The notes beneath the pieces were generated by a model that was not told where the DNA came from, made no database searches, and saw only the letters and a program-made list of their open reading frames with translations. The translations under genes were made by a program, and so were the position numbers. This document shows, in pieces, positions 23,130 through 24,635 of a stretch of DNA of 64,000 nt (position 1 is its first letter; the number at the start of each line of letters is the position of its first letter). This DNA is from Cutibacterium modestum (GTDB lineage Bacteria; Actinomycetota; Actinomycetes; Propionibacteriales; Propionibacteriaceae), in contig NZ_BJEN01000003.1 in assembly GCF_008326345.1 (NCBI RefSeq), positions 558,001 through 622,000 of the forward strand, written 5' to 3'.

Positions 23130-24502
23130 TCACACACCCGTGCGAGGCATTTGCCTTGGGTGAGCGGGGCCGACCGGAACCGTAGTCTGGGTTGGTGTCG
23201 GAACCACAGGTGTGGTGACTGTGGTGGTTTCGGCGTGTTCACCGCACTTGCCCTGGGCGAGCACCTTGCCGTTGTTGTCGGTGAGGGTTTCCACCCAGTA
23301 GTAGGTGCCGGCCTGGTCGACGGTCACCTTCGGAGAGGCGATGTCGATGGGCTGGGTGTGGTCGCCGGCGGGAACCGCGACGGGCTTGGTCGTGATGATC
23401 GAGTCGCCGCACATGTTCGGTAGTAGCCCTTTGTGGGACAGCTTGAACGTGATGTGGGCGCCTTCGGGAACCGTGCCGGTGATGTGGGCGGTGTCGCCGA
23501 AGGGCTTACCCACCTCGGCGGTCTGGTCGGCGGTGGTGGTCACTTTCACATGATTCGACGGTGTTGGGGTTGGAGTTGGTGTCGGAGTTGGAGTTGGAGT
23601 TGGTGTCGGAGTTGGTGTCGGAGTTGGGGTTGGCTTGATTGGCTGGATGGGAACAATGATGCGATCCTGATGTCCCTTCTGCCCTGCTCCAAGGCTCAGA
23701 GCAGCCCCGGCGAACTCTGAGGTCCCCTGTGCGTCGGACGTTGAGTCCAACGGATCTGAGACAGGAATGGCCTTTTTGATTAAATAATTATAAATACTAG
23801 CTATGTGCTTCTTTGTGCTGTCGGGGACGGGTATAAAGATACCATTTACATATTCGGTGATATCATTACTTTTCAGGGTGAAATCATCACTGAAGTGCCA
23901 TATTGCCGCCTGGGTAGCGGTCACGGCATCCCTATGATCGGATCCTGTTGCATCATCGTTCCCATTGGCAGCGTTAGCTTGCTTCTCTAACTCATCAAGA
24001 GCTACGCTAGGATAGCCGTTTTTCGCAACCCACCCAATTTTAGGGAGTGCATTGGGGAGATTATCGTTGTAGTGTGGCTTCAGCTCACTCCACTTGGTGA
24101 GAGTTCCTGTGTCCTGACGGTACCGTTCCTGAAACGAATTCTTCTCAATGCAGTACGCCAGTACTGGATCACCATCTAATGTATAGGAATCGTCGTTTGT
24201 GTCCGTCGGGTGGAGCGCTGTTAGATCAGCAAGTCCTGCAGCTGTGCCGTCTGCGAGATAGTATCCCGTGTAATAGAAGGGGCCGTTCTCCATCGAGTCG
24301 CTGACGTAACTTGGGAGTTTCTTGTAGAAGGGGGATTCCGCGCGTGCGGTCAGTGACACTGAAGCTTGATCTCCAGCTTTTGCGTGAATTTCATTTACTG
24401 TGTCAGCGTTCGCGGGGGGGGGGGGGCACTAAAAAGCGCAGACCCAACAATCAGCATTCCGGCCAATACTGCGGTCGTGGGGGATTTAAAACTTTGCTTC
24501 AT
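23130..24502 (-). CDS. Phase-variable thioester-domain (TQXA) surface adhesin with PT repeats, phase OFF
   Basis: A ~455-residue surface protein. Translation would start at ATG 24502 (AAAGGAACC upstream) with a signal peptide, MKQSFKSPTTAVLAGMLIVG then SALFSA, running into a 13-C tract. With 13 C the frame ends after ~10 codons; with 11, 14 or 17 C it reads ANAD (a likely signal-peptidase site) and continues through the whole gene to 23130. The mature part has a thioester domain: Cys in LAYCIEKN and Gln in TATQAAIWHF, the residues that form a Cys-Gln bond to host targets in TQXA proteins. Then comes a 12-unit Pro-Thr stalk, a beta-rich domain (ADQTAEVGKPFGD to the Cys in GKCGEH) and a C-terminal QMPRTGV resembling a sortase motif but with no hydrophobic tail. 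The organisation resembles the C. acnes dermatan sulphate-binding adhesins (DsA1/DsA2), as recalled from the literature. Confidence 0.85.
23561..23633 (-). repeat. Hexanucleotide repeat encoding the Pro-Thr stalk
   Basis: Twelve consecutive six-base units of the type CCN-ACN (minus strand) encode 12 Pro-Thr dipeptides between the thioester domain and the C-terminal domain of the adhesin. Variants CCA ACT, CCG ACA and CCA ACC alternate. Such arrays can change length in whole units without a frameshift. Confidence 0.95.
24414..24426 (-). repeat. Poly-C (G on + strand) 13-mer slippage tract
   Basis: Thirteen consecutive G on the + strand (C in the gene) fall at codons 26-30 of the adhesin, at the end of the signal peptide. 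One G plus the tract must be a multiple of three for the reading frame to continue, so lengths of 11, 14 or 17 are ON and this 13 is OFF. It is the only homopolymer of this length noticed in the window. Confidence 0.95.
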
Positions 24503-24635
24503 GTGGATTTAGAGGTTCCTTTTGCTTTTGGTTGTGTAACCATAGATGAATTCTTTAAAAATATGTGAAACGACTTTGGTTAAGGGTTTTCTTTCATTAT
24601 CCTCTTTCCTTGGAAACTACTCAAAATAGCGCGTA

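What the first reader, a model, noticed from the sequence alone, without database searches (positions are those of the whole stretch)
24414..24426. Slippage-prone poly-C tract in a signal peptide sets the adhesin gene OFF in this sequence
The tract of 13 C lies between a good signal-peptide start (ATG 24502, AAAGGAACC upstream) and the rest of the adhesin. Counting codons from the ATG gives an early stop with 13 C. With 11, 14 or 17 C it gives an A-x-A cleavage site and an open frame to 23130. A gene predictor would start at a downstream GTG and miss the signal peptide and the on/off switch.
Basis: partly seen in the sequence, partly recalled or inferred. Interest (0 to 1): 0.85.

Follow-up and report, generated by a model that had tools for sequence, protein, structure and literature searches.

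The report
Poly-C switch in a skin-bacterium adhesin
A run of 13 C's sits inside the export signal of a surface-protein gene of a skin bacterium and puts the gene out of frame in this sequence, an on/off arrangement of a kind already described for other surface proteins of its close relative Cutibacterium acnes.

Summary
Thirteen C (minus strand) fill 24414-24426, the longest C/G run in the held 2.63 Mb genome. They lie at the end of a signal peptide starting at ATG 24502; as deposited this frame stops at 24397-24395, straight after the tract. The rest of the gene (frame 24428-23130) encodes a thioester-domain, Pro-Thr-repeat surface protein, orthologue of a C. acnes gene that is probably PPA1715. 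Orthologues in C. acnes, C. namnetense and a third Cutibacterium have a homologous signal peptide, no run of 8 or more, and no break there. The mature part is under ordinary purifying selection on this lineage (dN/dS 0.20), so the break is recent or reversible. A DsA2-like adhesin gene of the same genome carries a C12 tract at the end of its signal peptide and is also out of frame. The kind is known: a frame-shifting C tract near the 5' end of DsA1, and 54 variable tracts in C. acnes, are in print. The gene, the species (most likely C. modestum) and the two tracts at signal-peptide ends are what this adds. Switching within a population was not tested; an assembly miscount is not excluded.

The parts
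24414..24426 (-). C13 homopolymer tract at the end of the signal-peptide coding region
   Evidence: longest C/G run of the held genome
24636..24664 (-). promoter-like site TTGAGA-17-TATACT with TG before the second hexamer
   Evidence: 10 of 12 matches; 3 such sites found in the region, 1.4 expected, sd 1.2, so weak on its own; aligned with similar letters in C. acnes and C. namnetense, not in G006
24514..24522 (-). probable ribosome-binding site AAAGGAACC, about 14 nt before the ATG
   Evidence: AGGA conserved in all four aligned sequences
24427..24502 (-). signal peptide start and hydrophobic core, upstream piece of the adhesin
   Evidence: homologous to MKQMFKSPTTAVLTGVLIAGSALL of C. acnes (L043:3926)
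24395..24397 (-). TAA that ends the ATG 24502 frame as deposited
23130..24428 (-). downstream open frame (432 codons and stop), mature part of the adhesin; ORF-caller start GTG 24359
23769..24158 (-). thioester domain (PF08341) with YCIE and TQAAIW motifs
   Evidence: 57.9 bits, cut-off 22; TIGR03934 TQXA; Cys and TQxxIW also in L019 and L020
23556..23633 (-). Pro-Thr repeat
   Evidence: sequence
23130..23150 (-). C-terminal MPRTG-V then stop: LPXTG-like motif without membrane span or charged tail

Best explanation
This is a simple-sequence contingency locus: a slippage-prone poly-C tract at the signal-peptide end of a thioester-domain, Pro-Thr-repeat surface adhesin of a Cutibacterium species (most likely C. 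modestum). Shown by the sequence: at the deposited length the reading frame of the conserved ATG ends just after the signal peptide, while the rest of the gene is open in another frame and its thioester part evolves under purifying selection. Inferred: no adhesin is exported in this state, and replication slippage changes the tract length and moves the gene between an exported and a non-exported state, in single cells or over lineage time, as proposed for DsA1 of C. acnes.
For: Tract, frame and stop as deposited. The signal-peptide half and the mature half each match one uninterrupted orthologue in C. acnes (L043, 522 aa) and C. namnetense. In pairwise alignments with these two (24535 to 23650) the out-of-phase gaps lie upstream of the ATG or at or within ten bases of the tract, none in the mature part; the C-terminal piece, aligned with C. 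acnes only, has no gap. Branch dN/dS on 241 codons is 0.20 here, 0.18 in C. acnes, 0.19 in C. namnetense. A run of 13 exceeds both chance controls. The DsA2-like gene of the same genome has a C12 tract at its signal-peptide end and also stops directly after it as deposited. Published precedent: DsA1/PPA2127 C tract with a frameshift and premature stop in strain P6 (PMC3224659, passages); phylogroup differences in DsA1 attributed to the C tract, and unlabelled cells in a clonal strain (PMC6560440, passages).
Against: No length variation was observed, because one genome per species is held. In 90 C. acnes genomes tract lengths mostly follow clades, which the authors read as slow accumulation rather than active modification (PMC4746626, abstract, passages, sections 17 and 21). 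The assembly has 9 contigs and unknown read type, so a homopolymer miscount is possible. A leuC-like gene is also split at a G10 tract in this assembly, and the DsA2-like gene has a further out-of-phase difference away from its tract; both would also fit decay or sequencing error. The 24-codon signal-peptide piece differs from C. acnes by 6 nonsynonymous and 2 synonymous changes, so it shows no purifying selection of its own, though the sample is small.
Confidence: 0.72

Rival explanations
1. Lineage-level loss: the tract broke the gene recently in this strain or clade and it is drifting to a pseudogene, without useful switching back.
For: Tract lengths are mostly clade-stable in C. acnes. The DsA2-like gene of the same genome carries a second out-of-phase difference besides its tract. 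A leuC-like gene is split at a G10 tract. The signal-peptide piece has 6 nonsynonymous against 2 synonymous changes from C. acnes.
Against: Own-branch dN/dS of 0.20 in the thioester part is like that of relatives. No stop in 432 codons. No out-of-phase gap in the mature part down to 23650 against C. acnes or C. namnetense, nor in the C-terminal piece against C. acnes.
Confidence: 0.17
2. Sequencing or assembly miscount: the true tract length in the strain differs and the gene is not off.
For: Long C/G runs are hard to call. Four contigs of the C. namnetense assembly begin or end in runs of 15-17. Both adhesin genes of this genome with tracts of 10 or more are out of frame as deposited.
Against: A long tract exists here whatever its exact length, whereas C. 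acnes and C. namnetense have interrupted pyrimidine stretches. In C. acnes, six genomes had their repeat loci checked by Sanger sequencing.
Confidence: 0.09
3. The protein starts at the downstream GTG 24359 and is not exported; the upstream reading is spurious.
For: It is the first start an ORF caller finds.
Against: Start region and signal peptide are conserved in C. acnes and C. namnetense, and a homologous signal peptide is continuous with the mature part in all three orthologues. PPA1715, the probable C. acnes orthologue, is listed with a signal peptide among secreted proteins (PMC3224659, passages).
Confidence: 0.02

Closest known systems
DsA1 / PA-25957 / PPA2127 of Cutibacterium acnes (Lodes 2006, not seen; known here through passages of PMC3224659, PMC6560440, PMC3772855)
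   Same: C tract near the 5' end of a Pro-Thr-repeat surface adhesin, frameshift with premature stop in some strains, LPXTG-like C terminus without membrane tail
   Different: DsA1 is not of the thioester family by the search made and is another locus. [quoted passage not shown] DsA1 of the C. acnes genome held here (L102) has runs of 6 and 7 C but none of 8 or more.
PPA1715 of C. acnes (probable orthologue)
   Same: Homologous signal peptide, thioester domain, PT repeats, 87% and 92% protein identity over two pieces, CorA-like and NUDIX-like genes on one side
   Different: No run of 8 or more and uninterrupted in the C. acnes genome held here; genes on the other side (thiD-, SDR- and MatC-like) are arranged differently
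Homopolymeric tracts of C. acnes (Scholz 2016, PMC4746626)
   Same: Almost all G/C; those inside genes can shift frames
   Different: The study covers 88 C. acnes and two 'P. humerusii' genomes. Its supplementary tables could not be read here, so whether this locus is listed is unknown.
PPA1880 of C. acnes
   Same: PT-repeat putative adhesin with a variable homopolymer at its 5' end (PMC3224659 passages); the likely counterpart in L047, by PT repeats and tract, has a run of 14
   Different: G on the coding strand, in the promoter or the extreme N terminus
Thioester-domain (TED/TIE) adhesins of Gram-positive bacteria (PMC4450167, PMC6194298, passages)
   Same: TED with [YFL]C and TQxxW motifs
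   Different: No isopeptide or ester domain reached E 0.001 in Pfam; PT stalk; no sortase tail

Membership tests
Simple-sequence (homopolymer) phase-variable contingency gene | tract longer than composition predicts, inside or just before a coding region | tested here: met
Simple-sequence (homopolymer) phase-variable contingency gene | tract length changes the reading frame or expression | tested here: met
   as deposited the two halves are in different frames, while orthologues are uninterrupted; expression not tested
Simple-sequence (homopolymer) phase-variable contingency gene | tract length varies reversibly within a species or clone | not testable with these tools
   one genome per species; no reads
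C. acnes PPA1715 orthologue group | orthology by sequence and gene order | tested here: met
   87% and 92% identity over two pieces; CorA- and NUDIX-like neighbours on one side in both, other side rearranged. The locus tag itself rests on KPA position and PT repeats
DsA1/DsA2 dermatan-sulphate adhesin family | homologous non-repeat region of DsA | tested here: not met
   a 99-residue piece of the DsA2-like protein matched one place in this genome, its own, and three in C. acnes; the window gene was not among them. It may work like DsA1 but is not a member.
Thioester-domain adhesin | PF08341 above curated cut-off with Cys and TQxxW motifs | tested here: met
   (0 of 14 control genomes rang)
Thioester-domain adhesin | formed Cys-Gln thioester that binds a host target | not testable with these tools
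   needs mass spectrometry; the structure job did not finish
Sortase-anchored LPXTG protein | LPXTG followed by membrane span and charged tail | tested here: not met
   MPRTG is followed by one residue and stop

The most novel reading that the evidence does not exclude
Cutibacterium repeatedly gains poly-C switches at the same functional spot, the signal-peptide end, in unrelated adhesins: this thioester adhesin and the DsA2-like gene here, and perhaps DsA1 in some C. acnes strains, where papers disagree on whether the tract is in or before the signal peptide. The signal-peptidase region would then be a recurrent cradle for phase switches, giving each species its own set of switchable, possibly covalent-binding surface proteins. 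(Odds lowered from 0.30 to 0.25 on re-check, because the place of the DsA1 tract is not settled by what I saw.)
Probability: 0.25. Interest if true: 0.55.

Novelty: new member of a known kind. Interest (0 to 1): 0.36.

Why it matters
It extends the known C. acnes adhesin switching to a different protein class (thioester domain) and to another skin species. Three relatives lack the tract, so it was most simply gained or lengthened in this lineage. It also shows why automatic annotation would drop the signal peptide and call the protein cytoplasmic. Strain comparisons of adhesin presence in Cutibacterium should score tract length and not gene presence alone.

Tried and rejected
Rejected: membership in the DsA family. 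Rejected: a composition effect for the run of 13. Sequence search of PDB chains with the thioester piece found nothing up to E = 1. The structure job was not finished at any later look and is not used. The one genome-contig scan returned 2 relatives, C. namnetense and a Dactylosporangium bin. Rows dropped: the rows with 'own' (slicing error, one codon) and the C-terminal codon row (wrong frame); otherwise replaces. The G006 slice ran past its intended end (488 codons) and the own-G006 row is not used. In one search only motif ORFs over 150 aa with PT repeats or a tail under 60 aa were printed. Paper searches with C. modestum or with tract, adhesin and humerusii terms showed capped lists (15 of 34 papers; 15 of 195; 10 of 4,768). 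No title there is about this locus, but absence from print is not shown. In PMC8620323 'adhesin', 'homopolymer', 'phase' and 'dermatan' do not occur. All 5 papers that hold 'PPA1715' were listed; I saw passages of 4 of them, not of PMC9143108.

Full report
What is there. The minus strand has 13 C at 24414-24426. From ATG 24502 the deposited sequence reads 35 codons (a basic start, a hydrophobic core and four prolines) and stops at TAA 24397-24395. The rest of the gene is open in another frame for 432 codons to 23130; the ORF list starts it at GTG 24359. It has a thioester domain (PF08341, 57.9 bits against a cut-off of 22; TQXA domain TIGR03934, 57.5 against 30.4), a Pro-Thr repeat, and ends in MPRTG-V. 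A promoter-like site lies at 24664-24636 (3 sites against 1.4 expected) and aligns with similar letters in C. acnes and C. namnetense.

Chance. The held genome (2,626,218 bases, 9 contigs) has 40 C/G runs of 7 or more: 32, 3, 0, 3, 0, 1, 1 of lengths 7 to 13. This tract is the longest. Two order-5 Markov genomes gave at most 10, with 1 and 2 runs of 10, and more runs of 7 to 9 than the real genome. So 12 and 13 stand out; the three runs of 10 do not by this control.

Which organism. G001 is C. acnes: three DsA1 peptides from PMC5527093 occur in its gene L102 and in neither of the other two loci tested. G005 is C. namnetense: its contig of 63,755 bases has the length of the one named (one search lists the same genome's contigs, this one). 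The window's genome is neither. With 2.63 Mb, about 60% G+C in the window and a DsA2-like gene it fits C. modestum (strain HL037PA2 2.61 Mb and 59.94% G+C, PMC8620323 passage). This is inference; the genus has other species.

Relatives. A match to the mature part was found in 8 of 9 Cutibacterium genomes at E <= 0.001, several only through PT repeats; the thioester domain was found in 5 of 9. Three are clear orthologues: C. acnes (87% and 92% in two pieces), C. namnetense (84% and 87%) and G006 (61% and 64%). None of the three loci has a run of 8 or more. All three read from a homologous signal peptide into the mature part without a break; the C. namnetense contig ends inside the PT repeat. 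In the alignment the C. acnes and C. namnetense stretches are C-rich but interrupted, so the pure tract was most simply gained or lengthened on this lineage. Against both, out-of-phase gaps lie upstream of the ATG and at or within ten bases of the tract; none is in the mature part down to 23650, and none in the C-terminal piece, which was aligned with C. acnes only. The C. acnes gene is probably PPA1715: a region at 1,867,701-1,868,420 of strain KPA is described as upstream of PPA1715 (PMC4128656 passage), the held gene lies at a roughly corresponding place, and PPA1715 is a PT-repeat secreted protein with a signal peptide, seen in types IA and IB (PMC3224659 passages).

Selection. On 241 codons the pairwise dN/dS among the three species is 0.19 to 0.20, and the branch values are 0.20 (here), 0.18 (C. 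acnes) and 0.19 (C. namnetense). The mature part has not been idle for long. The short signal-peptide piece (24 codons) has 6 nonsynonymous and 2 synonymous differences from C. acnes, so it says nothing for constraint.

A second case in the same genome. At G000:C3:348281-348292 (L046:4282-4293) a C12 tract sits in a PT-repeat gene whose 99-residue piece is 94% identical to one C. acnes DsA gene (L101, presumably DsA2) and 82% to the other (L102, DsA1). Its signal-peptide frame also stops right after the tract as deposited, and it has another out-of-phase difference near L046:4063. Both C. acnes DsA genes held here read on, with no C or G run of 8 or more. Across nine genomes there are 20 runs of 10 or more, in 8 of 9 genomes. 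Besides the two here, one lies in a PPA1880-like gene of C. acnes (L047). Two contig ends of C. namnetense, from their flanks, look like the same locus. One lies in frame in a lipoprotein signal peptide of G007. For the other 14 I saw no such setting in a look at the nearby frames, which was not a signal-peptide prediction.

Known or new. The DsA1 C tract, its frameshift in strain P6 and strain-specific secretion are in PMC3224659 (passages). PMC6560440 (passages) places the tract in the 5' end of DsA1 and says that some cells of a clonal strain were unlabelled by an antibody to DsA1 and DsA2. [quoted passage not shown] PMC4746626 (abstract, passages, sections 17 and 21) counts 54 variable tracts and argues for slow change by clade, which speaks against fast switching. 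The kind is therefore known. The gene, the species and the placement of two tracts at signal-peptide ends are the additions.

Limits. No isolate-level variation, no reads, no start mapping and no binding data. The structure prediction did not finish. On re-check, wording was narrowed where a comparison covered only part of the gene, and the odds of the novel reading were lowered from 0.30 to 0.25.

Noticed in passing
window 23130-23150; L043, L045, L046, L047, L053, L087, L091, L101, L102: LPXTG-like motifs of Cutibacterium surface proteins are followed by a single residue and stop, with no membrane span or charged tail: 11 of 12 printed motif ORFs, in five genomes. In this genome a pattern for the ending gave 8 hits against 2 for the reversed control; 6 of the 8 end an open frame at a true stop. 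PMC5527093 notes the missing tail for DsA1 (passage). How such proteins would be anchored is open.
   Followed up: partly
L046:4282-4293 (G000:C3:348281-348292): C12 tract at the signal-peptide end of a DsA2-like PT-repeat adhesin, out of frame as deposited, with a further out-of-phase difference near L046:4063.
   Followed up: yes
L048:2324-2333 (G000:C1:37323-37332): A leuC-like gene is split at a G10 tract: aconitase profile 1-197 in one frame and 195-463 in the next. PMC4746626 reports a degraded 3-isopropylmalate dehydratase large subunit at tract HPT_21 in C. acnes.
   Followed up: partly
L049:2325-2334 (G000:C2:525324-525333): G10 tract near the end of a GFO/IDH/MocA oxidoreductase reading frame; PMC4746626 describes a variable tract in a putative oxidoreductase (HPT_06). 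Whether it is the same gene was not tested.
   Followed up: no
G005 contigs C9, C16, C19, C20 (L090, L087, L088, L089): Four contigs of the C. namnetense assembly begin or end in C/G runs of 15-17, so the assembly seems to break at such tracts.
   Followed up: no
L095:2205-2215 (G007): G11 run inside the signal peptide of a lipoprotein-like frame (MDRRGFIIAGGGAVFAALALGGC), in frame as deposited.
   Followed up: partly
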